This document shows, in pieces, positions 37,633 to 64,000 of a stretch of 64,000 nt of DNA. The notes beneath the pieces are model-generated. The model was not told where the DNA came from. It searched no databases and saw only the letters and a program-made list of their open reading frames with translations. A program made the position numbers and the translations under genes. Each line of letters begins with the position of its first letter. Positions within the stretch are counted from its first letter, which is position 1. The stretch comes from Gracilaria domingensis (taxonomy: Eukaryota > Rhodophyta > Florideophyceae > Gracilariales > Gracilariaceae): positions 1-64,000 of the forward strand of contig VCMS01000361.1 in the NCBI GenBank assembly GCA_022539475.1, written 5' to 3'.

Positions 37633-38633
37633 ACCCTTAGACACGAGAGGCTGCAGGTGTCTGTGTCCACCCTTGGCACGGCTGCGAGCTCCAACTCCCG
37701 TGTCTGTCCTCCTCTATAGCATCGTATATCAGATGAATTGGGCCTCGTACGAGCTGCAACGGCCCCCGTTCTGGAAAGAGGGGAAGGTCGAAAAGTAACT
37801 CGTCTATCAGTTGTCTCTCGATTTCTTATTGTCTTTCTCCCTTGTCCGGACCCATTTCGAGGCATAATACGATTCATAGCGGACCCAGTTCTAGAAGACA
37901 GGGAGGGACGTGACGATCTTAATATACTAGGGCTCTCACGACTTCTCGTCATTGTCCCTTGTTGTCCAGATCCACTGGGCGGCGTAACCCGCGCCCCAGT
38001 AGCTCCGGTCTTCGATATCGGCCGGGGACATGAAGGTTTTGGTGTCATACGAACCTCTTCAGTTCCAGTTGTCATGCCCTCCTGTGCTGACCCGCTGGAC
38101 CGAGTTACCTCATCTTCTTGAGGAGCAGAGAAAGATGCACGATTTGCATTATCGGCAGTTGACGGCACGACATCGTTCGCTGATCCACGAATTTTTGACG
38201 CAATCCCGGAAGACGCTCCGCTGCGAGATGGGCGAGAGAGTACTGCAGAAGGACGCCCACTGACTCTCTCCTTCGTCGAGGACGACTTCTGTTAAGGAAG
38301 TGCGGTGCTTGTAGCCTGATTCGTATCATCCGATGCTCTTCTCTTCTTCTGTCCACTCTTGTTCCGCTGCGTACTATTTCGCTTTCTCGGCGTTATATCC
38401 ACGTTGTGGAGATAAACAGGGTAATGAAACGAAATTTTTTGGGGCGGGGGAGGGGGTGGGGGGGGTGCATGGTTCAGATATTCCGGGACACTCCGCAGTT
38501 CCTGCTTTTTAGGAATTTGAGGTGCCCAATGGGTCGCAAATATCGCCGTTACAAATAGATAAAGAGCTCCAGTGTACATGTACAACGCGTATTGCAGGCA
38601 GCTGCAACATTCACAAGCATATTTACTTTCCAT
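37599..38633 (-). pseudogene. Pro-tract, Ser/Arg-repeat protein (left copy)
   Basis: The frame from the ATG at 38,633 (MESKYACECC) has a hydrophobic segment (ALYLFVTAIFATHW), a run of eight Pro and a basic region (TPRKRNSTQRNKS). It is stopped at 38,292, and homology goes on in the repeats of 38,168-37,700 (SPSILRSSRPSLSSRTG and kin). The right copy at 63,121 is open over the same span. It lies 17 bp downstream of the methyltransferase-SET gene, same strand. Function unknown. Confidence 0.5.
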
Positions 38634-38649
38634 TCGGTACTGAACTCAT

Positions 38650-41600
38650 CTATTGCTCCAATGTCAGAGCCCAGTCCCAGGCGTACTGCTCTCCGTAGTT
38701 GAAATACAACTCTTTGACCCTCTCAATATCTCTTACTGCTCTACAACGGAGTAGAGCATAGTTAGAAAGGTCGGACTTGAACTGTATCACGGACTTCGCT
38801 TCCACCACCTGCACATTGGCACTTCGAGTCCTGTTTGACCGGGGCTGCGATAAATCGGGATCCCCGGCATGATATCCGGCGTCGTTAATGTAGCCCCCGA
38901 TACAAAAAGGCGCCGGGACAATGTACACTTCGCTCTCCTTTCTATCCTGAGCCTGTTCTGGTCTGTTCCTCAGGTGCAGAAACTCCGTACCAGTCCAGTG
39001 ACCATCATAGAAAACAACTTGTACCGCACTGGAGTTGCTCCGAGACAGCCACTTCCATACGTTAAGTGTCTTTCCTTCCGGTTCGTCAGATCCGTGTATA
39101 CCAAAGTTCCATAAAAATGACAGATAGTTTCCCCAGCCAATATCTTATGTTCCGTGAACACCCCCATACCAGCACGGGGATGTCGAATCTTAGAAGATGC
39201 TACATGTAAGCGATAGCGATTGGCTTCAACAGTCAACAGCATATGCATATCCATTAGATTCAGAGCTCCTCGGTACTTCTCCTCCCAAAGATCTACAGTA
39301 TGCTGTCCACACTTGTCGACAAAGTCCCAGTCCTTCCAGTATCTTCCTAGAAACTGAGTAATATGTGCAGGCATCACTTGGTACTGGGGGTATCCAAATC
39401 GAGCCTCCCATTCAAGCCGATCTCGGTCCGGATGTGGAACCCGTTCATAAGTCGTTGAAGCAGCATCCACCACCTCCTGTTCAACCAGGATGTCATTCTT
39501 GCCCCCGCGAAGAACTTCGGCCATAAGAGTCGTTATATGGTGCTTCGCATGGCTGAAACTTGGCCTATTCTTCTCGCACCCCAAGAACTTCCTATGCTTT
39601 GTCAGCGATAGGCACGCCATACCCGTAAAAAAAGTTCCCGCGAACATGTCCATGACAAGATCACCCGATCTTGTGAAGCGACATATCAACTCTTTCATCA
39701 ACTCCCTGGACTTCTTCTCCGGTCTTATGTACTGACCACTTGGTACTGAACTACCTGGCTCATTTACCTTCCATGTCAACCACTCCCCCGCTCTCGGTTT
39801 TGGCACCCGGTCAATTACATTCCTGTTTGCCGGGAAAGTAAAAGGAATGAAATTGTTCTCATCAAATGGAGTAAGACTGGCTTCCTCGGATGGTCGCAAT
39901 CCACGCTTCACCCCATGAACGGCGTACTCCGTTACGGGCTGTATCCTAAACTTCCGTGGATTCCCTCCAACATTACTTCGATCCCGGATGAACACCAGTG
40001 GATTCCCATCCACTTTAAACTAAGGCATGAGTTCTGGCTTACCTTCGCTTCCAGCTTCATCTTTCGTACTCGCCGTTTCCGAAAGTATCCTGTGCCAAAC
40101 ATGAAACTGTGCCATGGCACAGAATATAATGAAGTGCCCACCTGAACGAAGCGCGGAACTTATTAAGTCAGCCGTACTGATCATGTCATCCTCACTGAAG
40201 ACATCGTGAGCACTATTCCGTTTGTTCCTCTTCCTTCGAGTGTTAAAGGGAGGGTCTGTTAGTACAAGCTGTGCCTTACCCCATAAAATCTCACTCTGAT
40301 TCACAAATGTTTCGTGTGTGTGCCTCAGGTCCTTCATGTCACAGTTGTACGCTACAAAGTGTGACTTTCTCATCCCCTTCCACACCTTGTCCATATTCAT
40401 TCGAAGGAGACTGGATATCCCCTTCATGGGCCGCTCAATACCAGTTTTTTGGATTTTGTAACCGGCAACCCGAGATTCATGCTCCGCAAGATTCACCGGC
40501 TTCTCGAAGTCGTCGCTGTCGGAGCTCACGAGGTTCATATACTCTCGACGAGGTGGGGGTGGGGCAGACTTGGTCAAAGAAAGTTCGGCAATACCGGAAG
40601 TTTTAGGGGTTTTCGTCAGTTCAATATCAGGTTTCGCGTGAATGCCGACATGGAACCCTGCCGCATGACGCATATCCTGTATCGGTTTCCATAGCAACTC
40701 CGAAAACTTCTGAAATCGAGCAGGCAACTCACCGGAGTCAGAACCAGATACGGTATCCATCCGTATCTCCGAAAACTCTATCCAGTTCCTCATCTGATCA
40801 GCCCGTAAGCTATAGAGGCTATGGTGGGTGCATATGGTTTCGAGGTCTGTCAAAAATTCCTTAGCCAGTATTCGGAGGTTTGTATCGCATTCATCACTCA
40901 AGGTCTCCACCGATCCACTAGTACTGCTCTGTGGTACATCCTGTGTGTTCAATCGAGTACTCTGGCTCGGCGGGGCATAACCAGACTCCCGTGTCTCTAG
41001 CGCTGTATACTTCAACGTCTGCATATTCATGTACATGTATGGTTTCACCATGTGCTGAACGTTCGTGTATCCAAGATGAGCCGCAAAACAACTCTATGCC
41101 CATACGACCTCACTGATAGCGAATCCCAGTCGATCACAGTTGTCTTTGGAGAACGACGTAAAAGTGGTATGTACACAGATGGTGCATGGTTCACTTTTCG
41201 TTTCTTTTTCGGTTGTTTCTTCTTTATCATTCGGATGTTGTCGTTCTCTCCCATTATGTGGCCGATGTATGATAAGTATATAACGACCTCAAATGGGTTC
41301 ACAGCTGTTGGTGGGATGAACACTGTCGTCTTCAGAACCTGCTTTCTCCTGGTCATGAAATAATCAACCAGGCATCGCACCGGTAGGTATATACCCATAT
41401 CCATAGAGAGAAGGAAAAAATCGCGGAGTCTCTGGTCCTCATCTCCGTCCTTCTTGTCAAGAAGCTTCGTTACAAGATATCGTTGTTCCACAGGTTTGTT
41501 ATTCACAACACTCTTTCGCAGCAGTTGCAGTGTCAAGTTCTGCAGGTTCTTGGAGTTAGTGGCCTCCTCAAACATCTTCCTTTCCTCCGGAATATCCCTA

Positions 41601-41785
41601 TAGTTCTCGGCGCAGAACTCTATTAGCCCTCTAAACCCCACGTCCCGTGGCCAATCGGGGCCTCCATCGCTGTTTGCCAAAGCATCGCGAAGAACCAAGA
41701 AAAGTCTGACATATGCATGGAACGCCGGAGGCGGAGCACTCATGTCGATAGGATGTATCTCCTCTCCATCATCGGTGGAATCCAT
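38650..41785 (-). pseudogene. DNA methyltransferase-SET protein gene (left copy)
   Basis: The gene starts at the ATG at 41,783-41,785 and runs outward. The N-terminal 240 residues are of unknown fold and hold an exact SV40-type nuclear signal PKKKRKV (41,193-41,213). Next comes a beta-class amino-methyltransferase: motif IV LTDPPFN (DPPFN at 40,242-40,256) with GGHFIIFC after it, then motif I LVMDMFAGT (39,633-39,650) with FLGCEKN. The C-terminus is SET-like: RLHVASSKI, AGMGVFTEHKILAGETICHFYG, GGYINDAGY, and ELYFNYGEQYAWDW before the stop at 38,650. This copy keeps the SET end whole but has a frame change near 41,150, a stop near 40,020 and a frame change near 38,980. Confidence 0.7.
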
Positions 41786-41800
41786 CGCTTCAGCGCAAAC

Positions 41801-41890
41801 AACGGAGGCGAGCCTTTAAATGGCGACTTACGCTGGGCACCCCCGCTTTCGGCAGCTCCTCCCAGCGCATTGCCAGTCTCGTCCGTGTCC
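41801..41890 (-). promoter_or_regulatory. 90-bp promoter cassette of the methyltransferase-SET gene (left)
   Basis: Read on the minus strand, about 90 bp ending 16 bp before the ATG at 41,785 are nearly identical to 42,605-42,694 on the plus strand. The cassette ends with CATTTAAAGGCTCGCCTCCG, where ATTTAAA is a TATA-like box. The same sequence stands before the right-arm gene. Confidence 0.65.
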
Positions 41891-42073
41891 GTGTCCGCTC
41901 CCTTCTGAGGTCGGTGTCCGTGCCGCTTCGAGCGGGTGCGATAGCGTCGCGTGTCGGCCACGTCGCCATTTGGAGCTATTGCAAAGGTCGCGTATTGTGC
42001 TAATAGTCGCGGACCAAGTGGGTGTGAAGCGCTAGTTTTCTCTAGTTTGATATATCTGCACGGCGTGTGCAGC

Positions 42074-42394
42074 GAAATCACTGCCGGAAGTGCCGGGAGG
42101 AGTGCTTTGGAAGGTCTCGGGAGGGTACCAGAATGTTGCCGGAACGTGCTCGCGGGCGGGGGGGGTCGGTCGTGTTAGGGTACCTACCCTAACACGACCG
42201 GGGCCCCCCGCCCGCGGGCACGTTTTGGGCGATTTTTGGAAAAATGTGCGATTTTATGCCCGCGGGCGGGGGGATCCGATCGTGTTAGGGTACCTACCCT
42301 AACACGACCGACCTCCCCCGCCCGCGAGCACGTTCTGGCCACATTCCGGCGCCTTCCCGGGACCCCCCAAAACACGCCGCCTCGCAGTGATTTC
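42074..42394. repeat. GC-rich nested palindrome block (left arm)
   Basis: Two 34-bp palindromes have arms CGGTCGTGTTAGGGTA around a CC centre; their centres are at 42,183/42,184 and 42,293/42,294. The second has one mismatch. Each is flanked by GCCCGCGGGC-type runs that extend the pairing to about 40 bp per arm. The outer flanks (GAAATCACTGC on both sides) are also inverted, so the whole 320 bp is one nested inverted repeat. It sits between the divergent methyltransferase-SET and ParB-oxygenase gene clusters. Confidence 0.8.
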
Positions 42395-42604
42395 CCTACA
42401 CCCGGCCGCCGGTACGTTGGCGCCGCTGTCCACGTGTATTGGCGGGAGTAGGTTGTACATGAAAGTGAATGAGTGTACTCTTGACTACTATGCAAAGCAT
42501 TTGAAGAGCACGATTAGAGAGCGCGACCATTGCTCGCGTGAGTCATCATTGCGCGAACTCCACGACTCTAAAGCGTACAATCAGCGTGCGAGCGGCCACG
42601 GACA

Positions 42605-42694
42605 GGACACGGACGACACTGGCAGTGCGCTGGGAGGAGCTGCCGAAAGCGGGGGTGCCCAGCGTAAGTCGCCATTTAAAGGCTCGCCTCCGTT
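42605..42694 (+). promoter_or_regulatory. 90-bp promoter cassette of the ParB-oxygenase gene cluster (left)
   Basis: A copy of the methyltransferase-SET promoter in opposite orientation, including the ATTTAAA box at 42,674-42,680, placed 63 bp before the ATG at 42,757. Only a few bases differ. The right arm lacks this copy: there the gene's start is joined directly to the palindrome block. Confidence 0.65.
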
Positions 42695-42756
42695 CTTGTA
42701 TCGTCCAGAGCGAGCGTATTGTTGATATACACCTTTCACTGCAATAGCTGTTCAAC

Positions 42757-43569
42757 ATGAAGCCAACTCGTGTTCGAAAGCGTACGCAAAGCGTGACTCC
42801 TCGCACTCGGCGGAGCACTCGATCATTGCAAGGTGGAATGCGGGTTTCTCTGCAGATGGATATTGAGAATGAAGGAAAGGTGATAGTCGGGGAAGCGTTG
42901 TTGCATGGAGTTGGAAGTGTTCTACGCCGCGAGTTTAACGGGAAGCAATTGGACCCAGGTCTTGTGGTGGTTCATAATATTCTCATCAGTCGAAGCGGTC
43001 AGACGTTCTACCCTTACCGGGCGGAGGGCCTGGATCTTCCACAATACATCCAGGATCTCTGGATGGCCGCTCCTTGGGATGAGAAAATGATGGAACCGGT
43101 GGCAGCCAGCATTTCGGCGTCCAAGCGACGAACAGTGAGCGCTATGAGTGAGGTGATGACGCCGACAAGCCGCACGGAGCCAATTCGAAGTTCATCAACA
43201 CCGAGAGGTAGCGCATCAGTAGCACCTCCGGGGGAGGTCCGTCGTCTGTTACGAAGCGGTCTATGGAGACGAGATCATCCCCAGCTACGAAGCGGACAGG
43301 TCAAGCAAAGTCTACCTCCGCTACGAAGCCCACTGCGTCGAAAAGGGCATCTCCTGCGATGAATCAGACCGTCGACACAAGGGAATTTCTGCGTCGAAAC
43401 AGACGGTTCAGCACGGGACGGCTGAGCAAGAAGAGGAAGATGAGATAATAAAAGGTCCCCTTCCAGACGCGGATGCGCAATCTGCACAAGGAGCTGGTCC
43501 ATCTGTACCCCAAACTGCACCAGAAACTGCGGAGCAGCAGGACGATGACGTTGTGCTTCTGTGCGCAAG
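42757..43569 (+). pseudogene. Unknown protein ahead of the ParB-oxygenase gene (left copy)
   Basis: The frame starts at ATG 42,757 with a basic N-terminus (MKPTRVRKRTQSVTPRTRRS), then a compact part (ENEGKVIVGEALLHGVGSVL ... KQLDPGLVVVHNILISRSG ... LPQYIQDLWMAAPWDE), then a Ser/Thr/Arg-rich repeat tail (SATKPTASKRASPA-type words). The frame changes at about 43,230, and homology to the right copy goes on to 43,569, where the ParB-oxygenase ATG follows at once. It may be a separate gene or the N-terminal part of the same one. No family recognised. Confidence 0.45.
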
Positions 43570-46500
43570 ATGGCACGTTCAAGTGTTTCTGGTGAGCGGT
43601 CTGGAACACAAGAGACACCTACTCGGAGCAAGACGTACAGACGAATTCGTCAGAAGGTACCAAAGGTGAACCTCAATCACTAGCGGATGGTTGTTGCTAC
43701 TGTTGACATCACTCTGGTAAACACTCCGCCCAATTTACTCCGTGGAGTAAGTAAACGCCACGTTGAAGCCCTTGTGAAGAGTATGGAGTAGCGGGAGATA
43801 TTGCAGTCGATGGGTTATCCAGTGGTGGCCTTACAAGATGCTACTACGGGACAGAGGGATACTGACAAGGGACGCCTAACGAAGAAGTGCTTCATTGTAG
43901 ATGGTTTGCATCGTCTGAAAGCTATACAATATTTGGCAGCGACTGGTGCACCGAAGTGGAAGCGATTAGCCAAGTTTTGGCGTTGCAATCTGCTGATACG
44001 AAGAGATGGGAGGCCCATTGGGATGAAGGAATTGTTATGTGTTGCTTCGTACCTCAATGAGTCGACGAGTACCATGCGAAGGATGATGTTTGCAGACAAG
44101 ATACACTCTATAGTTAGTGTGGTCGCCATTCTAATTGAAGATGTTGAGGGGGTGACGCCGGCAGACGTGGATCCTGCAGAAGTGACGGAAGTGTTGAAGG
44201 AGATCCAACTGATTGGGACTGTGCAAGAGCGTCAGTATCTGAGATATGCCAATGTCGCCCTGCAACTCATGTCTCGTGAGGGAATGCTGGCCCATTTCGA
44301 GGATATATGTGAGAGTGTGAGTGACATAGGTCTCACACATCTGTCCCATACTCCGCTATATGTTTTGGATGCCGAGGAGTTTTCCTTCATTCTTGATTGT
44401 CTTTAGATGTTTCTATTGAAGGGCAAGTCGACGAAGACAAAGCACTTGAAAAGCTTTGAGGAGGTTCGAGGTTTCTTTTATGATAGAGCAGTGTCTCTGT
44501 TCCGCGCGGCTCGAGCAGTGAGGAATGAACTGAACGAGGAAGAGTCCATGGAAGTGTTCTTGAAACGCGAATTCAGTCTTTCTGCTCCATCGAATGAAGA
44601 TGACGTTGAAGACCCTGACAACAATGCAGCTGTGTATCAGTTCCTTTTGGGACAATTTGTGAACTTCAACACATTGCCGCGTGTTCGAGCAGGACGAACT
44701 CAATTAGAACTGCCACGACTTCCGTTCAGAATCGATTGCGGACGATGCTCAAGGTAATTCCCCCCCCGCACCAGTGAAGCAGTCCGTGACGAAGAGGAGG
44801 ACTCCTGCTGCTGCTGCTGCGACATCTGCCAGTCAAGAAGGGATGCCACGAAGAAGTGCACGAGAACGGGCGCAGGTGAGTTATAGGGAAATTGAGCACG
44901 GCCGAAATCGAGGTGCCATAGAAGTTCTGGATAGCTCTGAAGAAGAACAGCGGGCTCCGCCGAGGAAGAAACGGAGAAAAACTTTCACACAACAGATGAG
45001 ATCTACTCTGAACAGCATGACACCGGATGACCTGATGTCTCAACTAAATGAACATGTGCTGAGAGGAAGGTCGATGAAGGTTCAGTTCGTGGCATTGGGA
45101 GAGGGAGCGAATGCAGAGAACGCAGGCAGTTCTGCATTTGTGGATGACGAAGAGCTTCTTGCTGTGATAGTTCCACGTGTTGTCACCGTCGAGAAAGATG
45201 CTGCGCCAGACGATCAGCAAGAGACGGGTCGGGGGTCATTTGATGACGAGTTACATACAGCTCTTCCGGAATCTGAGGAGCACGGACTTGTTCGACGAGA
45301 CCCATATGATCACCCACCGAACCCATCATGGTGCGGGTATATCAGGCTGAGACCGCAGGAATGGAAAGGGAAGAACGTAATTGAGCACAAGGACCCCTGG
45401 CTCAGAGTCATTCACTTGCCGAAGGGACATAGGTCGGAGCTGCTAAGTGTCTCGAATCTCAGAGATGTACACCATCTTGTCTTTTGGCACGCTGCAAGGG
45501 CTGAACATCGCCTACGGGCGGAGACATTTGGTATGCAGTATCCTCGTATTCGGCCGACAGGTATGGATGATGAAGAGGTGCTGTGGGTTGCTGCGAAGGA
45601 GCATGACGAATTTGGGCACATGTTCTTCGCCCGAATGCAAGCTGAGCTAAGGCAGAATGGATATTGCGTGCTTGATGGCTTTGCGACGGATAATGGTGTC
45701 CCTAAATGGGAGGAGTTGGAAGAAGTTCGGGAGTTCGGAGATGTGTCGGGGAAGTTGGTGGACTTCTTCGAGAATGAGTACGGAGCGATGCAGGATATAC
45801 GGAAAAGGGAGGAACAGAAGTCGTTTGTACAAATAATCAACGATGATGAAGGATGGAAGGACGGTAGCGATGGACCATTTGAGAGGAGAGTGATGTCGAC
45901 ACGTTGGGGTACGGTGGAGAAGCCGGATGATAATGAGGAGCTCAGGTGGGTTGTATGGTCGCGTGCTTTACTTGATGTTCGAATGGGTACAATTGCTGCG
46001 GCTTTGGGACTATGGGACAATGAAAGGGAAGCTGTGAAGATGTACACTCCGAAAACTGGTGGTCGATTTCTGGGGACGACAAGAAAGTGCAAGCGCCAGA
46101 CGCTGCACACCGATTTCAGTGGTCTGGTTACGAAGGAAACCATGAATACTGGTAACCGCGGATACTTTGTAATGGCCTCTGGGAAAGAGGGCTTTCCTCT
46201 CTGGGTGAGCGCTGGAAGCCATCAACTGGTGGGGATGAACAACCAACAGTTGCGAGTGATGTCGGAGGTGTATCCAGCGAAGAAGATAATCATCCCACCG
46301 TACTCTGTATTCATGGGCCGTGGTGATGTGACACATGCTGGAGCAAGTGGGAAGGACAAGGTAGATAGGCCCGAGTCTATAGATGTGCTGGTTAGATACC
46401 ACATGTAGATGGTACCAGAGTGCTACGCACTACCTGATGCTGTTCATCAGGTGCGGCATTTCCGACCCACGTTTGTCAATGGTGACGAGGAGGAGTAGGC

Positions 46501-46669
46501 GGAGGATGAACTCTTGTCCGATAAGGAGGATGGGGCGGTTGACATGGAAGAAGACCAAGTGGTCGTGGAGATTGGTGTGGAAGCGGAGGCCGGTAGAACT
46601 GAAGTGCTCGAGAGTAGTAGGGATGACGATTTGCCAATAATGAGGCTGCGAGCGCCTCGAAGTGGATGA
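43570..46669 (+). pseudogene. ParB-like/2OG-Fe(II)-oxygenase-like protein (left copy)
   Basis: This is the counterpart of the intact right-arm gene (54,860-57,961), clearly homologous throughout but interrupted: a stop near 43,790, TAG at 44,404 (CAG in the right copy), a frame change around 44,690, a stop at 46,406 (TAC in the right copy) and one near 46,497. The stretch 44,774-46,408 is open for 544 codons and keeps the oxygenase signature (LHTDFSG ... GDVTHAGAS). The ParB-like signature VDGLHR is kept near 43,905. Confidence 0.8.
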
Positions 46670-46924
46670 GAATGAGATGGTTAGTAAATTATGAGTGTCT
46701 TGCGAGTATTTAGAGTAGTATACTATTGCAAGGCTATACATATGAACATAGAAAAGGTGCGGCAGGCTGGTAATTGAACAAATGTCATATTCTTTGATCT
46801 GTTGCGTCTAATTGGAACATGCTTGGTATCGTTAACATCATTGGTGGCACCATTCAATTCACAATTGAACATGCAGCGTCCTAACACTTCTGAAACTGCA
46901 CTTAAGGTTGCTTTTAAGAGAAGT

Positions 46925-47869: not shown

Positions 47870-47880
47870 GCTCTCATATC

Positions 47881-50677: not shown

Positions 50678-50685
50678 TATAAAAG
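50678..50685 (+). promoter_or_regulatory. TATA box ahead of the epimerase fragment
   Basis: TATAAAAG lies about 70 bp upstream of the epimerase homology, on its strand, and would place the transcription start near 50,710. Confidence 0.45.
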
Positions 50686-52565: not shown

Positions 52566-53004
52566 AGCCGTTTTGGGGCGAGGCGGGTATACGAGAAGGG
52601 GGAGAGTTGTGCACCTGACTTCTACAAAATGAACGCGTGATGGGCGAGAAATGGGTAAATAGCGGGGGTGGTGTGGACTGGGAAGAAGTGATGGGATGAT
52701 TGAGATGGGATGAGTTGCGATTGGCATTGCAACATGGGAGAAAATGGAAACGCAAACTAGCACGAGTGCAGTTTTGAGAGAGGGTCGCGGAAAAGAGTGA
52801 ATGGGGTGGTGCGGCGAAGTAGAACCTCTACAAAAACTAGGGGACCCAAGCACTAAACTGCGCGAAATGGAATTTAATATTCCAAAATTTCTTAATTTTT
52901 TGAGTGCCAGCCTCTGCTACCCCCTCGCGCGCCCCAAATAGCCCCAAAACTAGCTTAGTTTCCAAAGCGAACAGACTATATTCCACTTTGCAGAACACAG
53001 ACGT
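52566..53004. other. Spacer without a recognised gene
   Basis: Non-coding, ending exactly at the inner edge of the right arm of the inverted duplication (53,005). Confidence 0.45.
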
Positions 53005-53631: not shown

Positions 53632-53683
53632 CTATGATATGAGATCTCAGTAATAAGAGTGTCGTATATATCTCAATACCCTT

Positions 53684-54595: not shown

Positions 54596-54859
54596 ACTTC
54601 TCTTAAAAGCAACCTTAAGTGCAGTTTCAGAAATGTTAGGACGCTACATGTTCAATTGCGAATTGACTGGTGCCACCAATGATGTTAACGATACCGAGCA
54701 TTTGGCATGTTGCAATTAGACGCAACTGGACCAAAGACGTATGAAATTTGTTCAATTACCAGCCTGCCGCACCTTTTCTATGTTCATATGTATAGCCTTG
54801 TAATAGTATACTACTCTTAATACTCGCAAGACACACATAATTTACTAATCATCTCATTC

Positions 54860-57800
54860 TCATCCACTTCGAGGCGCTCGCAGCCTCATTATTGGCAAAT
54901 CGTCATCACTACTACTCTCGAGCACTTCGGTTCTACCGGCGTCCGCTTCCACACCAATCTCCACGACCACTCGGTCTTCGTCCATGTCAACCGCCCCAAC
55001 CTCCTTATCGGACAACAGTTCATCCTCCGCCTCCTCCTCCTCGTCACCATTGACAAACGTGGGTCGGAAATCCCGCACCCGATGAACAGCATCAGGTAGT
55101 GCGTAGCCCTCTGGTACCATGTACATGTGGTATCTAACCAGCAAATCCATAGACTCGGGCCTATCCACCTTGTCCTTCCCACTTGCTCCAGCATGTGTCA
55201 CATCACCACGGCCCACGAATACAGAGTACGGTGGGATGATTATCTTCTTCGCTGGATACACCTCCGACATCACTCGCAACTGTTGGTTGTTCATCCCCAC
55301 CAGTTGATGGCTCCCAGCGCTCACCCAGAGAGGAAAGCCCTCTTTCCCAGAGGCCATTACGAAGTATCCGGGGTTACCAGTATTCATTGTTTCCTTCGTA
55401 ACCAAACCACTGAAGTCGGTGTGCAGCGTCTGGCGCTTGCACTTTCTCGTCGTCCCCAGAAATTGACCACCAGTTCTCGGAGTGTACATCTTCACAGCTT
55501 CCCTTTCATTGTCCCATAGTCCCAAAGCCGCAGCAATTGTACCCATTCGAACATCAAGTAAAGCACGCCACCTCACAACCCACCTGAGCTCCTCATTATC
55601 CTCCGGCTTCTCCACCGTACCCCAACGTGTCGACATCACTCTCCCCTCAAATGGTCCATCGCTACCGTCCTTCCATCCTTCATCATCGTTGATTATTTGA
55701 ACAAACGACTTCTGTTCCTCTCCTTTCCGTATATCCGGCATCGCTCCACACTCATTCTCGAAGAAGTACACCAACTTCCCCGACACATCTCCGAACTCCC
55801 GAACTTCTTCCAACTCCTCCCATTTTGGGACACTATTATCCGTCGCAAAGCCATCAAGCACGCAATATCCATTCTGCCTTAGCTCAGCTTGCATTCGGGC
55901 GAAGAACATTTGCCCAAATTCGTCATGCTCCTTCGCAGCAACCCACAGCACCTCTTCATCATCCATACCTGTCGGCCGAGTACGAGGATACTGCATACCA
56001 AATGTCTCCGCCCGTAGGCGATGTTCAGCCCTTGCAGCGTGCCAAAAGACAAGATGGTGTACATCTCTGAGATTCGAAACACTTAGCAGCTCCGACCTAT
56101 GTCCCTTCGGCAAGTGAATGACTCTGAGCCAGGGGTTCTTGTGCTCAATTACGTTCTTCCCTTGCCATTCCTGCGGTCTCAGCCTCACATACCCGCACCA
56201 TGATGGGTTCGGTGGGCCATCATATGGGTCTCCTCGAACAAGTCCGTGCTTCTCAGATTCCGGAAAAGCTGTAGGTAACTCGTCATCAAATGACCCCCCA
56301 CCTGTCTCTTGCTGATCGTCTGACGCAGCATCTTTCTCGATGGTGACAACCCGGAGAACTGTCACAGAAAGAAGCTCTTCGTCATTCACAAATGCAGAAC
56401 TGCCTGGCTTCTCTGCATTCGCTCCCTCTTCCAATGCCACGAACTGAACCTTCATCGACTTTCCTCTCAGCAATTGTTCATTTAGTTGAGACATCAGGTC
56501 ATCCGGTGTCATGCTGTTCAGAGTAGATCTCATCTGTTGTGTGAAAGTCTTTCTCCGTTTCTTCCTCGGCGGAGCCCGCTGTTCTTCTTCAGAGCTATCC
56601 AGAACTTCTATGGCACCTCGATTTCGGCCGTGCTCAATTTCCCAATAACTCACCTGCGCCCGTTCTCGTGCACTTCTTCGCGGCTCCCCTTCTTCACTGG
56701 CAGATGTTGCAGCAGCAGCAGCGGGAGTCCTCCTCTTCGTCACGAACTGCTTCACTGGTGCGGGGGGCGGAATTACCTTGAGCATCGTCCGCAATCGATT
56801 CTGAAGGGAAGTCGTGGCAGTTCTAATTGAGTTCGTCTTGCTCCGAACACGCGGCAATGTGTTGAAGTTCACAACTTGTCCGAAAAGGAACTGATACACA
56901 GCTGCGTTGTTGTCTGGGTCTTCAACGTCATCTTCATTCGATGGAGCAGAAAGACTGATTTCGCGTTTCAGGAACACTTCCATGGACTCTTCCTCGTTCA
57001 GTTCATTCCTCACTGCTCGAGCCGCGCGGAACAGAGACACTGCTCTATCATAAAAGAAACCTCGAACCTCCTCAAAGCTTTTCCATTGCTTTGTCTTCGT
57101 CGACTTGCCCTTCAATAGAAACATCTGCAGATAATCAAGAATGAAGGAAAACTCCTCGGCATCCAAAACATATAGCGGAGTATGGGACAGATGTGTGAGA
57201 CCTATGTCACTCACACTCTCACATATATCCTCGAAATGGGCCATCATTCCGTCATGAGACATGAGTTGCAGGGCGACATTGGCATATCTCAGATACTGAC
57301 GCTCTTGCACAGTCCCAATCAGTTGGCTCTCCTTCAACACTTCTGTCACTTCTGCAGGATCCACGTCTGCCGGCGTCACCCCGTCAACATCTTCAATTAG
57401 AATGGCGACCACACTAACTATAGAGTCTATCTTGTCTGCAAACATCATCCTTCGCATGGTACTCGTCGACTCATTGAGGTACAAAGCAACACACAACAAT
57501 TCCTTCATCCCAATGGGCCTCCCATGTCTTCGTATCAACAGGTTGCAACGCCAAAACTTGGCTAATCGCTTCCACTTCCGTGCACCAGTCGCTGCCAAAT
57601 ATTGTATAGCTTTCACACGATGCAAACCATCTACAATGAAGCACTTCTTCGTTAGGCGTCCCTTGTCAGTATCCCTCTCTCCCGTAGTAGCATCTTGTAA
57701 GGCCACCACTGGAGAACCCATCGACTGCAATATCCCCCGCTCCTCCATACTCTTCACAAGGGCTTCAAAGTGGCGTTTACTTACTCCACGGAGTAAATTG

Positions 57801-57961
57801 GGTGGAGTGTCCACCAGAGTGATGTCAACAGTAACAATAACCATCCGGTACTGATTGAGGTTCACCTTTGGTACCTTCTGACGAATTCGTCTGTACATCT
57901 TGCTGCGAGTAAGTGTCCCTTGTGTTCCAGACCGCTCGCCAGAAACACTTGAACGTGCCAT
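54860..57961 (-). CDS. ParB-like domain fused to a 2OG-Fe(II)-oxygenase-like domain (intact)
   Basis: An uninterrupted protein of 1,033 residues from the ATG at 57,961. Residues about 40-145 resemble the ParB/sulfiredoxin fold (FEALVKSMEERGI ... KKCFIVDGLHRVKAIQYLA), with the D-G-x-H-R signature at 111-115. The middle holds helical parts and a nuclear-type basic patch (PPRKKRRKT). The C-terminal third has the jelly-roll iron triad: H847-x-D849 in LHTDFSG, H923 in GDVTHAGAS, and a candidate 2-oxoglutarate-binding Arg at 943 (LLVRYHMY). The tail is acidic (EEEEAEDELL ... SSSDDDLP). Established: ParB/Srx folds bind or hydrolyse nucleotides and some bind DNA palindromes; HxD...H oxygenases oxidise bases, proteins or small molecules. 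Inferred: a nuclear DNA- or chromatin-acting enzyme. It diverges from the methyltransferase-SET gene. Confidence 0.7.
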   Translation of the reverse strand: MARSSVSGERSGTQGTLTRSKMYRRIRQKVPKVNLNQYRMVIVTVDITLVDTPPNLLRGVSKRHFEALVKSMEERGILQSMGSPVVALQDATTGERDTDKGRLTKKCFIVDGLHRVKAIQYLAATGARKWKRLAKFWRCNLLIRRHGRPIGMKELLCVALYLNESTSTMRRMMFADKIDSIVSVVAILIEDVDGVTPADVDPAEVTEVLKESQLIGTVQERQYLRYANVALQLMSHDGMMAHFEDICESVSDIGLTHLSHTPLYVLDAEEFSFILDYLQMFLLKGKSTKTKQWKSFEEVRGFFYDRAVSLFRAARAVRNELNEEESMEVFLKREISLSAPSNEDDVEDPDNNAAVYQFLFGQVVNFNTLPRVRSKTNSIRTATTSLQNRLRTMLKVIPPPAPVKQFVTKRRTPAAAAATSASEEGEPRRSARERAQVSYWEIEHGRNRGAIEVLDSSEEEQRAPPRKKRRKTFTQQMRSTLNSMTPDDLMSQLNEQLLRGKSMKVQFVALEEGANAEKPGSSAFVNDEELLSVTVLRVVTIEKDAASDDQQETGGGSFDDELPTAFPESEKHGLVRGDPYDGPPNPSWCGYVRLRPQEWQGKNVIEHKNPWLRVIHLPKGHRSELLSVSNLRDVHHLVFWHAARAEHRLRAETFGMQYPRTRPTGMDDEEVLWVAAKEHDEFGQMFFARMQAELRQNGYCVLDGFATDNSVPKWEELEEVREFGDVSGKLVYFFENECGAMPDIRKGEEQKSFVQIINDDEGWKDGSDGPFEGRVMSTRWGTVEKPEDNEELRWVVRWRALLDVRMGTIAAALGLWDNEREAVKMYTPRTGGQFLGTTRKCKRQTLHTDFSGLVTKETMNTGNPGYFVMASGKEGFPLWVSAGSHQLVGMNNQQLRVMSEVYPAKKIIIPPYSVFVGRGDVTHAGASGKDKVDRPESMDLLVRYHMYMVPEGYALPDAVHRVRDFRPTFVNGDEEEEAEDELLSDKEVGAVDMDEDRVVVEIGVEADAGRTEVLESSSDDDLPIMRLRAPRSG

Positions 57962-58566
57962 TCATGCGGACAGAAGCCCAACGTCATCGTCCTGCTGCTC
58001 TGCAGTTTCTGGTGCAGTTTGGGGTACAGATGGACCAGCTCCTTGTGTGGATTGCGCATCCGCGTTTGGAAGGGGACCTTTTGTGATCTCATCTTCCTCT
58101 TCTTGCACAGCCGTCCCGTGCTGAACCGTCTGTTTCGACGCAGAAGTTTCCCTTGTGTCGACGGTCTGATTCATCGCAGGAGATGCCCTTTTCGACGCAG
58201 TGGGCTTCGTAGCGGAGGTAGACTTTGTTTGACCTGTCCGCTTCGTAGCTGGAGATGCTCTCGTCTCCATAGACCGCTTCGTAACAGACGACGGACCTGC
58301 CCGCGGAGGTGCTACTGATGCGCTACCTCTCGGTGTTGATGAACTTCGAATTGGCTTCGTGCGGCTTGTCGGCGTCATCACCTCACTCATAGAGCTCACC
58401 GTTCCTCGCTTGGAGGCCGGAATGCTGGCTGCCACCGGTTCCATTATGAACCACCACAAGACCTGGGTCCAATTGCTTCCCGTGCAACTCGCGGCGTAGA
58501 ACACTTCCAATTCCATGCAACAACGCTTCCGCCACTATCACCTTTCCTTCATTCTCAATATACTCC
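57962..58566 (-). pseudogene. Unknown protein ahead of the ParB-oxygenase gene (right copy, 5'-truncated)
   Basis: Counterpart of 42,757-43,569. It begins within the GKVIV.EALLHG segment (58,566), where it is joined to the palindrome block, so the N-terminus and promoter are lost. About 120 bp are also deleted inside. The Ser/Thr/Arg-rich tail is open and stops at 57,962; the stop TGA is immediately followed by the ATG of the ParB-oxygenase gene (TGAATGG). Confidence 0.5.
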
Positions 58567-58576
58567 CGGCCCTCGG

Positions 58577-58775
58577 GCATAAAATCGCAAATTTTTCAGA
58601 AAATCGCCCAAAACGTGCCCGCGGGCGGGGGGGGGGTCCGGTCGTGTTAGGGTAGCTACCTTAACACGATCGACCCCCCTCCCGCCCGCGGGCACGTTTT
58701 GGGCACATTCTGGCACCTTCCCGGGACCTCCCAAAACACTCCTCCCTGCACTTCCGGCACCCACCGCGTCACCTC
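58577..58775. repeat. GC-rich palindrome block, partial (right arm, inner)
   Basis: One palindrome of the GTGTTAGGGTA family, centred at 58,655/58,656, with two mismatched pairs. It has the GCCCGCGGGC flanks on both sides and one outer flank ending in the GGAAGTGC word near 58,755. Confidence 0.75.
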
Positions 58776-59284
58776 AATGCACCAACGCGTCTTTTCCATC
58801 CTTCAAACGCTCCCTAACTCCCTGGTGTCAGCAGCGGTCGGTGTCGTCGGTTCAGAGTGAGACTGTTGTTTCGCGCGGTCGCTGGCGAGCACAGCGGCGG
58901 CCTTCCGATGGGCTGCATGCGCATAACGAACTTACGGCTCCCGGATGGAACTGCGTCATGTACAGTGGATGACTGGCGTAAAGATTAGTTTACTGAAAGT
59001 TAGAAGTTGTTTCATAGTTTACCACTAGACTACAAAAGAGTGCTATCGATGGCGCTCTTAAGTATTGCTGCGCCAGGGGCGGCCGGCGTGCCATCGGCGG
59101 TGCATCCAGTATATCAGCCCCAGTATATCAGCCCCCGTCGTGGAACACAGAGCAGAATTCATAGAGTCCCCCACATCATTGACTCTCGACACCATCCTCT
59201 CTTCTAGGGTAGGGGTGGTGCGCGTGGAAATTAGGGAGTTTCTGGAGGGTGAAGAAGACGGGATGGTGCACTCAGGTGACGCAA
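58776..59284. other. Right-arm-specific spacer
   Basis: About 500 bp with no counterpart in the left arm, lying between two palindrome blocks. No coding frame is recognised. It has replaced the ParB-oxygenase promoter region found in the left arm. Confidence 0.5.
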
Positions 59285-59625
59285 TGGGTACAGGAAGTGC
59301 CGGGGGGTGTGTTTTGGGAAGTCCCGGGAAGGCGCCAGAATGGGCCCAAAACGTGCCCGCGGGCGGGGGGGAGGGGTCGGTCGTGTTAGGGTAGCTACCC
59401 TAACACGACCGGACCCCCCGGCCCGCGGGCACGTTTTGGGCGATTTTTTGAAAAATGTGCGATTTTATGCCCGCGGGTGGGGGGGGTCCGGTCGTGTTAG
59501 GGTAGCTACCCTAACACGACCGACCGCCTGCCCGCCCGCGGGCACGTACTGGCCACATTCTGACACCCTGCGGAGACCTCCCAAAACACTCCTCCCGGCA
59601 CTTCCGGCAGTGATTTCGCTGCACA
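59285..59625. repeat. GC-rich nested palindrome block (right arm, outer)
   Basis: Two perfect 34-bp palindromes at 59,378-59,411 and 59,489-59,522, 111 bp apart, each with arms CGGTCGTGTTAGGGTAG. They are embedded in GCCCGCGGGC-type runs and outer inverted flanks (GGAAGTGCCGGG). This is the best-preserved block. The left-arm palindromes have CC instead of GC at the centre. Confidence 0.85.
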
Positions 59626-59800
59626 CGCCGTGCACATATATCAAACTGGAGAAAACTAGCCCTTCACACCCACTTGGTCCGCGACTATTAGCACAATACG
59701 CGACCTTTGAAATAGCTCCGAATCGCGACGTGGCCCACACGCGACTTTATCGCACCCGCTCAAAGCGGCACGGACACCGACCTCAGAAGGGAGCGGACAC

Positions 59801-59890
59801 GGACACAGACGAGACTGGCAGTGTGCTGGGAGGAGCTGCCGAAAGCGGGGGTGTCCAGCGTAAGTCGCAAATTAAAGGCTCGCCTCCGTT
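59801..59890 (+). promoter_or_regulatory. 90-bp promoter cassette of the methyltransferase-SET gene (right)
   Basis: The cassette (AGGAGCTGCCGAAAGCGGGG and neighbours) ends 15 bp before the ATG at 59,906. The TATA-like box reads AATTAAAGG here instead of CATTTAAAGG. Confidence 0.6.
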
Positions 59891-59905
59891 GTTTGCGCTG
59901 AAGCG

Positions 59906-62900
59906 ATGGATTCCACCGATGATGGAGAGGAGATACATTCTATCGACATGAGTGCTCCGCCTCCGGCGTTCCATGCATATGTCAGACTTTTCTTGGTTCT
60001 TCGCGATGCTTTAGCAAACAGCGATGGAGGCCCTGATCGGTCACGGGACGTGGGGTTTAGAGGGCTAATAGAGTTCTGCGCCGAGAACTATAAGGATATT
60101 CCGGAGGCAAGGAAGATGTTTGAGGAGGCCACTAACTCCAAGAACCTGCAGAACTTGACACTGCAACAGCTGCGAAAGAGTGTTGTGAATAACAAACCTG
60201 TGGAACAATGATATCTTGTAACGAAGCTTCTTGACAAGAAGGACGGGGATGAGGACCAGAGACTCCGCGATTTTTTCCTTCTCTCTATGGATATGGGTAT
60301 ATACCTACCGGTGCGATGCCTGGTTGGTTACTTCATGACCAGGAGAAAGCAGGTTCTGAAGACGACAGTGTTCATCCCACCAACAGCTGTGAACCCATTT
60401 GAGGTCGTTATATACTTATCATACCTCGGCCACATAATGGGAGAGAACGACAAAATCAGAATGATGAAGAAGAAACAACCGAAAAAGAAACGAAAAGTGA
60501 ACCATGCACCATCTGTGTACATACCCACTTTTACGTCGTTCTCCAAAGACAACTTTGATCGACGGGGATTCGCTATCAGTGAGGTCGTATGGGCATGGAG
60601 TTGTTTTGCGGCTCATCTTGGATACACGAACGTTCAGCACATGGTGAAACCATAAAATTACATGAATATGCAGACGTTGAAGTATACAGCGCTAGAGACA
60701 CGGGAGTCTGGTTATGCCCCGCCGAGCCAGAGTACTCGATTCAACACACAGGATGTGCCACAGAGCAGTACTAGTGGATCGGTGGAGACCTTGAGTGATG
60801 AATGCGATACAAACCTACGAATACTGGCTAAGGAATTTTTGACAGACCTCGAAACCATATGCACCCGGGATAGCCTCTATAGCTTACGGGCTGATCAGAT
60901 GAGGAACTGGATATAGTTTTCGGAGATACGGATGGATACCGTATCTGGTTCTGACTCCGGTGAGTTGCCTGCTCGATTTCAGAAGTTTTCGGAGTTGCTA
61001 TGGAAACCGATACAGGATATGCGTCATGCGGCAGAGTTGCATGTCGGCATTCACGCGAAACCTGATATTGAACTGACGAAACCCCCTAAAACTTCCGGTA
61101 ATGCCGAACCTTCTTCGACCAAGTCTGCCCCACCCCCACCTCGTCGAGAGATATGAACCTCGTGAGCTCCGATAGCGACGAATTCGAGAAGCCGGTGAAT
61201 CTTGCGGAGCATAAATCTCGGGTTGGCGGTTACAGCATCCAAAAGACTGGTATTGAGCCGCCCATGAAGGGGATATCCAGTCTCCTTCGATTGAATATGG
61301 ACAAGGTGTGGAAGGGGATGAGAAAGTCACACTTTGTAGCGTACAACTGTGACATGAAGGACCTGAGGCACACACACAAAACGTTTGTGAATCAGAGTGA
61401 GATTTTATGGGGTGAGGCACAGCTTGTCCTAGCAGACCCTCCCTTTAACATTCGAAGGAAGAAGAACAAACGGAATAGTGCTCACGATGTCTTCAGTGAG
61501 GATGACATGATCCGTACGGCTGACTTAATAAAATAAGTTCCGCGCTTCGGTCAGGTGGGCACTTCATTATATTCTGTGCCATGGCACAGTTTCATGCTTG
61601 GCACAGGATACTTTCGGAAACGGCGAGTACGAAAGATGAAGCTGGAAGCGAAGGTAAACCAGAACTCATGCCTTCGTTTAAAGTGGATGCGAATCCACTG
61701 GTGTTCATCCGGGATCGCAGTAATGTCGGAGGGAATCCACGGAAGTTTGGGATACAGCCCGTAACGGAGTACGCCGTTCATGGGGTGAAGCGTGGATTGC
61801 GACCATCGGAGGAAGCCAGTCTTACTCCATTTGAGGAGAACAATTTCATTCCTTCCACTTTCCCGGCTAACAGGAATGTAATTGACCGGGTGCCCAAACC
61901 GAGGGCGGGGGAGTGGTTGACATGGAAGGTACATGAGCCAGGTAGCTCAGTACCAGGTGGGCAGTACATAAGACCGGAGCAGAAGTCGAGGGAGTTGATG
62001 AAGGAGTTGATATGTCGCTTCACAAGACCGGGTGATCTTGTCATGGACATGTTCGCGGGAACTTTTTCTACGGGTATGGCGTGCCTATCGCTGACAAAGC
62101 ATAGGACGTTCTTGGGGTGCGAGAAGAATAGGCCATGTTTCAGCCATGCGAAGCACCATATAACGGCTCTTATGGCCGAAGTTCTTCGCGGGGGGAAGAA
62201 TGACATCGTGGTTGAACAGGAGGTGGTGGATGCTGCTTCAACGACTTATGAACGGGTTCCACATCGGGACCGAGGTCGGCTTGAATGGGAGGCTCCATTT
62301 GGATACCCCCAGTACCAAGTGATGCCTGCACATATTACTCAGTTCCTAGGAAGATACTGGAAGGACTGGGACTTTGTCGACAAGTGTGGACAGCATACTG
62401 TAGATCTTTGGGAGGAGAAGTACCGAGGAGCTCTGAATCTAATGGATATGCATATGCTGTTGACTGTTGAAGCCAATCGCTATCGCTTACATGTAGCATC
62501 TTCTAAGATTCGACATCCCCGTGCTGGTATGGGGGTGTTCACGGAACATAAGATATTGGCTGGGGAAACTATCTGTCATTTTTATGGAACTTTGGTATAC
62601 ACGGATCTGACGAACCGGAAGGAAAGACACTTAACGTATGGAAGTGGCTGTCTCGGAGCAACTCCAGTGCGGTACAAGTTGTTTTCTATGATGGTCACTG
62701 TTACTGGTACGGAGTTTCTGCATCTGAGGAACAGACCAGGACAGGCTCAGGATAGAAAGGAGAGCGAAGTGTACATTGTCCCGGCGCCTTTTTGTATCGG
62801 GGGCTACATTAACGACGCCGGATATCATGCCGGGGATCCCGATCTATCGGAGCCCCGGTCAAACAGGACTCGAAGTGCCAATATGCAGATGGTGGAAGCG

Positions 62901-63047
62901 AAGTCCGTGATACAGTTTAAGTCCGACCTTTCTAACTATGCTCTACTTCGTTGTAGAGCAGTGAGAGATATTGAGAGGGGCGAATAGTTGTATTTCAACT
63001 ACGGAGAGCAGTACGCCTGGGACTGGTCTCTGATATTGGAGCAATAG
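59906..63047 (+). pseudogene. DNA methyltransferase-SET protein gene (right copy)
   Basis: Starts at ATG 59,906 (MDSTDDGEE). Landmarks: nuclear signal PKKKRKV at 60,479-60,499; motif IV DPPFN at 61,435-61,449; motif I DMFAGT at 62,046-62,063 followed by FLGCEKN; SET words AGMGVFTEHKILAGETICHF, GGYINDAGY and YFNYGEQYAWD. Motif IV before motif I is the beta-class order; DPPF suggests N6-adenine over N4-cytosine. The copy is interrupted about six times, among them TGA 60,209 (CGA in the left arm), stops near 60,654 and 60,914, a frame change near 61,150, a stop near 61,534, and TAG 62,985 inside the SET end. The 468-codon stretch 61,581-62,987 is open and spans motif I and most of the SET part. 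Confidence 0.7.
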
Positions 63048-63120
63048 ATGAGTTCAGTACCGAATAGAAAGTAAATATGCTTGTGAATGTTGCAGCTGCC
63101 TGCAATACGCGTTGTTGTAC

Positions 63121-64000
63121 ATGTACACTGGAGCTCTTCATCTATTTGTAACGGCGATATTTGCGACCCATTGGGCACCTCAAATTCCTGAAAAGCAGGA
63201 ACTGCGGAGTCTCCCGGAATATCTGAACCATGCACCCCCACCCCCTCCCCCCCCCCCAACAATTTCGTTTCATTACCCCGTTTATCTCCACAACATGTGT
63301 ATAACGCCGAGAAAGCGAAATAGTACGCAGCGGAACAAGAGTAAACAGAAGAAGAGAAGAGCATCGGATGATACGAATCAGGCTACAAGCACCGCACTTC
63401 CTAAACGGAAGTCGTCCTCGACGAAGGAGAGAGTTAGTGGGCGTCCTTCTACAGTACTCTCTCGCCCATCTCGCAGCGGAGCGTCTTCCGGGATTGCGTC
63501 AAGAATTCGTGGATCAGCGAACGATGTCGTGCCATCAACTGCCGATAATGCAAATCGTGCATCTGTCTCTGCTCCTCAAGAAGATGAGGTAACTCGGCCC
63601 AGCGGGTCAGGACAGGAGGGCATGACAACTGGAACTGAAGAGGTTCGTATGACACCAAAACCTTCATGTCCCCGGCCGATATCGAAGACCGGAGCTACTG
63701 GGGCGCGGGTTACGCCGCCCAGTGGATCTGGACAACAAAAGACAATGACGAGAAGTCGTGAGAGCCCTAGTATATTAAGATCGTCACGTCCGTCCCTGTC
63801 TTCTAGAACTGGGGCCGCTATGAATCGTATTATGCCTCGCAATGGGTCTGGACAAGGGAGAAAGACAATAGGAAATCAAGAGACAACTGATAGACGAGTT
63901 ACTCCTCGACCCTCCCCTCTTTCCAGAACGGGGGCCGTTGCAGCTCGTACGAGGCCCAATTCATCTGATATACGATGCCATGGAGGAGGACAGACACGAG
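63121..64000 (+). CDS. Pro-tract, Ser/Arg-repeat protein (right copy, runs off the window)
   Basis: Open for 293 codons from the ATG at 63,121 to the window end. N-terminal hydrophobic segment (MYTGALHLFVTAIFATHW), a run of nine Pro in nucleotide C-runs (63,230-63,257), a Lys/Arg-rich stretch (TPRKRNSTQRNKSKQKKRR), then three or four tandem repeats of about 38 residues built on RPS-x-x-SRTGA-x-x-x-R and P-x-SGSGQ-x-x-x-x-T. The ATG at 63,295 is an alternative start; the left copy suggests an even earlier one (ATG there, ATA here at about 63,066). Same strand as the methyltransferase-SET gene and 74 bp after it, so perhaps co-expressed. Probably disordered and nuclear or membrane-anchored; function unknown. 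Confidence 0.55.
   Translation, partial: MYTGALHLFVTAIFATHWAPQIPEKQELRSLPEYLNHAPPPPPPPPTISFHYPVYLHNMCITPRKRNSTQRNKSKQKKRRASDDTNQATSTALPKRKSSSTKERVSGRPSTVLSRPSRSGASSGIASRIRGSANDVVPSTADNANRASVSAPQEDEVTRPSGSGQEGMTTGTEEVRMTPKPSCPRPISKTGATGARVTPPSGSGQQKTMTRSRESPSILRSSRPSLSSRTGAAMNRIMPRNGSGQGRKTIGNQETTDRRVTPRPSPLSRTGAVAARTRPNSSDIRCHGGGQTR

What the first reader, a model, noticed from the sequence alone, without database searches (positions are those of the whole stretch)
37700..64000. Candidate new element: divergent DNA/histone methylation and oxidation module
Both arms carry the same set: a methyltransferase-SET gene reading outward and a ParB-oxygenase gene reading inward, diverging from a palindrome block. 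Enzymes for writing DNA and histone methylation and a possible oxidative eraser, packed in a repeated and decaying unit, look like cargo of a selfish element. Established: fungal KDZ-type transposons carry TET/JBP oxygenases. I know of no element with MTase-SET plus ParB-oxygenase. That this is one mobile unit is inference.
Basis: partly seen in the sequence, partly recalled or inferred. Interest (0 to 1): 0.9.

Follow-up and report, generated by a model that had tools for sequence, protein, structure and literature searches.

The report
Algal repeat with paired epigenetic enzymes
A red alga carries two mirror-image, partly decayed copies of a DNA unit holding two unusual back-to-back genes: one looks able to methylate both DNA and histones, the other looks like a DNA-binding oxidising enzyme, and the unit is probably, though not provably, a mobile element that manipulates its host's chromatin.

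Summary
Two inverted arms (48511→37699 and 53004→63998, about 96% identical) carry the same divergent gene pair around a palindrome block. The right arm runs to the window edge, so the limit at 37699 is an artefact. The source is Gracilaria or a near relative: two ParB-oxygenase copies are annotated on separate G. domingensis contigs.

MTase-SET is a genuine fusion of a beta-class DPP[YF] amino-methyltransferase and a SET domain. Seven relatives at 24-39% identity, organisms not named, form one clade apart from 22 sampled prokaryotic methyltransferases. The partner has DGxHR (ParB-like) and HxD…H…R (2OG-oxygenase) signatures, invariant in 3 of 3 divergent sequences, but no family match or confident model backs these names.

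Both MTase-SET copies are broken; the right ParB-oxygenase frame is open. A decayed Plavaka transposase lies beside the left arm, but no convincing termini were found, and the whole-genome search did not complete.

Most likely: a dispersed mobile repeat with a co-expressed chromatin and DNA-modifying pair. "One mobile unit" remains inference.

The parts
37699..48511 (-). Left arm of the inverted pair (as far as it can be compared; continues left of 37699)
53004..63998 (+). Right arm, about 96% identical to the reversed left arm; cut by the window end
59906..63047 (+). MTase-SET gene, right arm: broken by 4 premature stops and two frame breaks; methyltransferase Pfam match in 61581-62987, DPPF motif upstream in another frame, SET domain at the 3' end
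38650..41785 (-). MTase-SET gene, left arm: broken by stops and frame breaks different from those of the right arm; the 3' limit is placed by alignment to the right arm
54860..57961 (-). ParB-like / 2OG-oxygenase gene, right arm: open frame of 1033 codons, starting about where the distant relatives start
57962..58516 (-). Upstream open frame, matching part of the N-terminal extension of the annotated G. domingensis proteins; one stop separates it from the 1033-codon frame
42757..46669 (+). ParB-like / 2OG-oxygenase gene, left arm: decayed; the 3' limit is placed by alignment to the right arm
41798..42697 (.). Palindromic intergenic block, left arm: 93-nt inverted repeat at its borders (41798-41890 / 42605-42697) and two hairpins (42148-42219, 42258-42329); candidate bidirectional promoter
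58562..59893 (.). Palindromic intergenic block, right arm: three hairpins (58617-58693, 59355-59430, 59469-59543); one 93-nt border repeat kept at 59801-59893
47237..47869 (+). HAD-like gene 1, left arm (R copy 53684-54400 -)
47881..48757 (-). HAD-like gene 2, left arm (upper limit approximate); a DIDGT motif lies past the arm border at 48511, so the right copy (52954-53631 +) is truncated
53684..54400 (-). HAD-like gene 1, right arm
52954..53631 (+). HAD-like gene 2, right arm, truncated at the arm border
35960..38291 (-). Third gene, left arm side: S/R-rich start, then coiled-coil-like segments (by eye), in broken frames; its first part is in the arm
63052..63999 (+). Start of the third gene, right arm, running off the window
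32785..35538 (+). Decayed Plavaka-type transposase (Pfam PF18759, 2.2e-16, in 33448-35538; start placed by eye), tail-to-tail with the third gene; membership in the unit not shown

Best explanation
Two old, inverted, decaying copies of a dispersed repeat in a Gracilaria genome, most likely a large DNA transposon or its cargo segment. Its core is a divergent gene pair read from one palindromic, probably bidirectional promoter. Gene A (MTase-SET) couples a bacterial-type beta-class amino-methyltransferase, with a catalytic motif that suggests N6-adenine, to a SET histone-lysine methyltransferase: a DNA-and-histone writer in one chain. Gene B couples a ParB-like DGxHR domain, presumed to bind DNA, to a 2-oxoglutarate Fe(II) oxygenase, presumed to oxidise methylated bases or histone marks. 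Proposed working: both proteins are made together and act on the element's own DNA and chromatin, replacing the host's silent state by an element-made one and so permitting expression and spread. Shown: anatomy, more than one copy, the fused domains of MTase-SET, conservation of catalytic motifs. Inferred: mobility as one unit, promoter function, substrates, anti-silencing role.
Against: No convincing terminal repeats: one exact 14-nt inverted match (30799-30812 / 52755-52768) is no more than 26 of 400 and 51 of 400 shuffles give, does not extend and has no matching flanks. Linkage of the two genes elsewhere not seen. Arm-to-arm differences are close to neutral in the ParB-oxygenase as a whole (p 0.17) and its N-terminal part (p 0.50), weak in the oxygenase part (p 0.086) and in MTase-SET as a whole (p 0.060). 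The oxygenase and ParB domains have no significant family match, and the model failed (pLDDT 32.8). The annotated G. domingensis proteins skip 185 residues that hold the oxygenase core. No G. domingensis MTase-SET protein was listed.
Confidence: 0.5

Rival explanations
1. A Plavaka-type (CACTA/EnSpm-related) DNA transposon in the strict sense: the transposase at 32785-35538, the third gene, MTase-SET, ParB-oxygenase and perhaps the HAD-like genes all lie between one pair of termini, as in fungal TET-bearing Plavaka elements.
For: Pfam Plavaka 2.2e-16; transposase and third gene about 420 bp apart, tail to tail, and the third gene begins inside the arm; fungal Plavaka families carry TET/JBP (PMC12730594).
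Against: No convincing terminal repeats or target duplication; the matching part of the right arm lies outside the window, so presence of the transposase in both arms is untested; the transposase could be a separate neighbouring element.
Confidence: 0.3
2. Segmental or palindromic duplication of a host locus: the pair are ordinary nuclear genes duplicated in inverted orientation around a host gene (ribulose-phosphate epimerase fragment in the spacer), with HAD-like genes as host neighbours.
For: Host-like epimerase fragment at 50683-50980 (by eye) and HAD-like genes within the arms; long uniform identity of about 96%.
Against: Two ParB-oxygenase copies on two contigs of G. domingensis; four copies at 90.0-96.0% pairwise, although L and P0003 at 96.0% could be orthologues if the window is another species; decay of both MTase-SET copies; retroelement and transposase nearby.
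Confidence: 0.25
3. Remnant of an integrated large DNA virus, which would explain the mixture of DNA methyltransferase, ParB-like, SET and HAD genes.
For: Gene types recall those of large DNA viruses (recalled, not tested).
Against: No relative of MTase-SET or ParB-oxygenase confirmed in IMG/VR: 0 of 33 and 0 of 102 stretches matching two peptide patterns each; no phage match for ParB-oxygenase; no capsid, packaging or DNA polymerase family among the Pfam matches of the ORFs scanned.
Confidence: 0.1
4. A host epigenetic system, in which MTase-SET and ParB-oxygenase silence transposons, as the captured bacterial methyltransferase N4CMT does in bdelloid rotifers; the window copies are pseudogenes of it.
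Against: More than one copy, decay and neighbouring transposable elements fit a mobile element better than a conserved host gene.
Confidence: 0.15

Closest known systems
TET/JBP-bearing fungal DNA transposons (Kyakuja, Zisupton, Plavaka and others; Kojima 2025, PMC12730594)
   Same: Oxygenase of the HxD...H type next to a transposase, one of the lineages being Plavaka; proposed escape from silencing.
   Different: Red alga, not fungus; oxygenase shows no detectable TET/JBP family match and is fused to a ParB-like domain; a DNA-plus-histone writer sits beside it; transposon ends not found here.
HarbingerS and MuDR transposons with SET genes in Phytophthora (cited in PMC12730594)
   Same: A SET histone methyltransferase as transposon cargo.
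   Different: Here SET is fused to a DNA amino-methyltransferase and paired with an oxygenase.
N4CMT of bdelloid rotifers (PMC8885841)
   Same: Eukaryotic beta-class bacterial-type amino-methyltransferase joined to a chromatin domain.
   Different: N4CMT has SPPY (4mC) and a chromodomain and is a host gene; here DPP[YF] and a SET writer domain, in a repeat.
CcrM and M1.HpyAVI beta-class N6-adenine methyltransferases
   Same: Permuted motif order, DPPY, best structural matches of the relative P0007.
   Different: Bacterial; the fusion adds a SET domain and, in P0007, about 430 residues before the methyltransferase part.
CcTET of Coprinopsis (6mA/5mC oxidase; described in PMC12730594)
   Same: Model for an eraser able to act on 6mA that is close to transposon-borne enzymes.
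   Different: No relation to the present oxygenase was detected; the two were not compared directly.

Membership tests
Beta-class DNA amino-methyltransferase | Motif IV (DPPY/F) before motif I (FxGxGT-like) | tested here: met
   D-P-P-[YF] in 7 of 8, DAPY in 1; D-x-F-[AS]-G-T-F in 8 of 8, in that order
Beta-class DNA amino-methyltransferase | Family profile and fold | tested here: met
Beta-class DNA amino-methyltransferase | Methylation of DNA adenine | not testable with these tools
   No assay; DPP[YF] suggests adenine by the rule quoted in PMC8885841
SET histone-lysine methyltransferase | SET profile and catalytic Asn and Tyr | tested here: met
   PF00856 above cut-off in 4 of 5 relatives, below it in P0008 (20.5) and in the truncated window frame (16.7 against 22.4); N971 and Y1034 in 8 of 8. 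The usual NHS (recalled) is ND here.
2OG-Fe(II) oxygenase | HxD...H triad and a downstream Arg | tested here: met
   H847, D849, H923, R943 in 3 of 3 sequences at 27-29% identity to the first
2OG-Fe(II) oxygenase | Family profile or double-stranded beta-helix fold | tested here: inconclusive
   No Pfam family up to E 10, no PDB sequence match; model pLDDT 32.8
TET/JBP | Match to TET/JBP profile | tested here: inconclusive
   No match, but known divergent members also escape sequence profiles (PMC12730594)
ParB-like (ParB/Srx, DGQHR) | DGxHR motif in an alpha-beta N-terminal domain | tested here: inconclusive
   Motif in 3 of 3 (DGQHR in P0006); PHROG ParB-like match E 0.037 and GmrSD_N E 0.31 are not significant, and unrelated families scored as well or better in the same calls (DUF7443 0.027, Lyx_isomer 0.037, Pyr_redox_2 0.14; PHROG 13921 0.0017 for P0005, a tail fibre family 0.0094 for P0006)
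Plavaka DNA transposon | Plavaka transposase | tested here: met
   PF18759 60.4 bits against cut-off 26.3, adjacent to the left arm, with in-frame stops upstream; that it belongs to the unit is not shown
Plavaka DNA transposon | Terminal inverted repeats (TGT..ACA or CATCA..TGATG) and 2-3 bp target duplications | tested here: inconclusive
   One 14-nt inverted match at chance level, without matching flanks; true ends unknown, the right arm leaves the window
Mobile element in general | Many dispersed copies with common ends | tested here: inconclusive
   Two copies in the window and two annotated ParB-oxygenases on separate contigs; ends not compared because the genome search did not complete
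Large DNA virus remnant | Relatives in viral contigs | tested here: not met
   0 confirmed of 33 and 0 of 102 pattern-matching stretches in IMG/VR

The most novel reading that the evidence does not exclude
A previously undescribed class of eukaryotic mobile element, spread beyond red algae, that brings its own complete epigenetic kit: a single-chain DNA-adenine and histone-lysine writer and a DNA-targeted oxidising eraser, co-expressed from a palindromic promoter, so that the element sets and resets its own chromatin state.
Probability: 0.3. Interest if true: 0.88.

Novelty: new variant of a known kind. Interest (0 to 1): 0.68.

Why it matters
Transposons with a single chromatin enzyme are known; a paired writer and candidate eraser in one repeat would make the arms race over silencing directly testable. 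A protein joining a bacterial-type DNA amino-methyltransferase to a SET domain is a ready link between DNA and histone methylation in one chain. It would also be, beside the rotifer N4CMT, another likely eukaryotic capture of the beta-class enzymes, with relatives in public assemblies that can be traced. In the ten literature searches made here, no listed title or abstract start describes this fusion or this pair; the lists were capped and the library holds open-licence papers only.

Tried and rejected
Viral origin: IMG/VR scans with both alignments gave no confirmed relative. Prokaryotic origin of the fusion: genome contigs gave 92 relatives, of which 80 were kept; these match only within residues 464-772 of the query, i.e. 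ordinary prokaryotic methyltransferases, and none of the 80 loci held the SET motif [FY]YGTLV[YF]. In one search, 22 of the 80 loci (21 bacterial, 1 archaeal), picked by me among those with long matches, went into the tree; the other 58 were left out. P0013 is a long branch there.

Alternative-code or intron readings of the MTase-SET breaks: rejected, because the breaks differ between the arms. Fold of ParB-oxygenase: model too poor to search. PDB search with the two domain alignments: nothing for one, two chance matches at E 0.42-0.43 to a 55-kDa erythrocyte membrane protein for the other. HAD-like protein against PDB: nothing. Terminal repeats: one exact 14-nt inverted match, 30799-30812 / 52755-52768. 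It stood within the shuffles of one comparison but above all 20 of another; with 400 shuffles each, 26 and 51 had such a match, and there is no extension and no matching flank, so I treat it as chance. A profile search for ParB-oxygenase with three sequences listed only the two G. domingensis proteins. Phage collection: no match.

Full report
What is there. The last 26 kb of the window hold two inverted arms. Left arm 48511→37699 and right arm 53004→63998 align at 96.0% over 5441 columns and 95.3% over 4701 columns (blocks). The right arm runs to the window edge, so the repeated unit is longer than can be seen. Between the arms lie 4.5 kb of different sequence with a 111-base gap at 50981-51091 and a fragment that reads as ribulose-phosphate epimerase (recognised by eye). 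The left arm goes on past 48511, because a DIDGT motif of a HAD-like gene lies there; the right arm is truncated at that gene.

Source. The closest proteins to the ParB-oxygenase are two Gracilaria domingensis proteins (4 hits among 7988 candidates scored). Their database names (mediator subunit 15-like; SasA) do not fit. Pairwise identities are L-R 92.5% (918 residues), L-P0003 96.0% (727), L-P0004 90.8% (714), R-P0003 93.1% (831), R-P0004 90.1% (825), P0003-P0004 90.0% (1053). The window is therefore Gracilaria or a near relative. G. domingensis has copies on two contigs, of 1,013,300 and 201,579 bp; if the window is from that species there are at least four copies, if not, some may be orthologues of others.

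The ParB-oxygenase gene. The right copy is open for 1033 codons and begins about where two distant relatives begin (P0005, P0006; 27-29% identity in the alignment, 32% over residues 611-959 for P0006). Three sequences share DGxHR near the N-terminus and HxD, GD..H and RYH at the C-terminus. No profile library recognises either part with significance, and AlphaFold with three sequences failed. The names are thus motif-based. Both annotated G. domingensis models skip 185 residues with the oxygenase core, at a GT…AG pair. A wrong intron prediction is the simpler reading, because the stretch is conserved in distant relatives, but splicing is not excluded.

Regulation. The two genes diverge from a block of 72-77 nt hairpins whose centre reads GTGTTAGGGTA[CG]CTACCCTAACAC in four of five, with one change in the fifth. 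In the left arm a 93-nt stretch occurs on both sides in mirror orientation (90 of 93 matched), just upstream of each gene. P0003's predicted N-terminus appears to read through the same block, which would make it part of another copy as well (by inspection). A shared bidirectional promoter is the natural inference; it is not shown.

Selection and decay. Differences between the arms were compared with random placement of the same changes, in eight subsets. MTase core plus SET: 20 synonymous observed, 11.5 expected, p 0.0038. MTase-SET whole: 32 against 24.9, p 0.060. Oxygenase part: 13 against 9.1, p 0.086. ParB-oxygenase whole: 35 against 30.1, p 0.17. The other four subsets (N-terminal parts, linker, middle piece) show no excess (p 0.50-0.72). 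Counting method dN/dS: 0.32 for MTase core plus SET, 0.53 for MTase-SET whole, 0.45 for the oxygenase part, 0.69 for ParB-oxygenase whole. The copies thus seem to have lived partly under constraint and partly as neutral relics; only the first subset is clearly supported.

Neighbours. Each arm also carries two related genes, 43% identical to each other, that I call HAD-like on a Pfam match below its cut-off (Hydrolase_3, 13 bits against 20.9) and a DIDGT motif. Each arm also holds the start of a third gene, with S/R-rich and coiled-coil-like segments, which in the left arm runs on to about 35960. About 420 bp further, tail to tail, ends a Plavaka-type transposase (PF18759, 2.2e-16). In fungi Plavaka and ten other transposon lineages carry TET/JBP oxygenases, and SET genes are cargo of HarbingerS and MuDR (PMC12730594: passages and section 3.2.3 seen). 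That makes a Plavaka element with epigenetic cargo attractive here, but no convincing termini were found, and the matching part of the right arm is out of sight.

Mechanism proposed. Both proteins are expressed together; MTase-SET writes adenine methylation and a histone mark on the element's chromatin; the ParB-like domain places the oxygenase on the same DNA, where it removes or converts methyl marks. The result would be resistance to host silencing, as proposed for fungal TET elements. DNA-adenine specificity follows from DPP[YF] by the rule given in PMC8885841 (passages seen). 6mA in eukaryotes is linked to permissive chromatin in PMC12695648 (title, abstract start and passages seen). All substrate claims are inference.

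Verdict. Observation confirmed; enzyme identity upheld for MTase-SET and plausible for the oxygenase; more than one copy shown; unit mobility not shown. The kind of system, transposon-borne chromatin enzymes, is known; this fusion and this pairing were not seen in the titles, abstract starts and passages that the searches returned.

Noticed in passing
window 979-11448: Gypsy-type retroelement ORF (5537-10702 -, RT, RNase H, integrase zinc-binding and protease domains) with direct-repeat pieces about 8.03 kb apart spanning 979-3417 and 9013-11448 (three pieces 99-100% identical, one 72% without gaps). They overlap coding sequence, so this may be a partial tandem duplication rather than plain LTRs.
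   Followed up: no
window 42148-42329, 58617-58693, 59355-59543: Five GC-rich hairpins whose centres carry TTAGGGTA[CG]CTACC[CT]TAA, resembling a telomere-type motif in mirror form; possible protein-binding site.
   Followed up: partly
P0003 and P0004 (G. domingensis): Database names (mediator subunit 15-like, SasA) do not fit the protein, and both models skip 185 residues that hold the oxygenase core.
   Followed up: partly
window 47237-48757 and 52954-54400: Convergent pair of weakly HAD-like genes, 43% identical to each other, inside both arms; host gene or cargo unknown.
   Followed up: partly
window 50683-50980: Fragment that reads as ribulose-phosphate epimerase (by eye), cut by the assembly gap at 50981-51091, in the spacer between the arms.
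   Followed up: no
window 31255-32415: A 75-nt near-perfect palindrome (32341-32415) upstream of the Plavaka transposase, and two copies of about 313 nt, 91-92% alike, 373 nt apart (31255-31941).
   Followed up: no
window 30799-30812 and 52755-52768: Exact 14-nt inverted match beginning with CAC; chance level by shuffles and without target duplication.
   Followed up: yes
window 16443-17642, 19698-20594 and 22209-23207: A cysteine-rich ephrin-receptor-like protein gene, a protein-kinase-like ORF and a DUF6818 gene.
   Followed up: no
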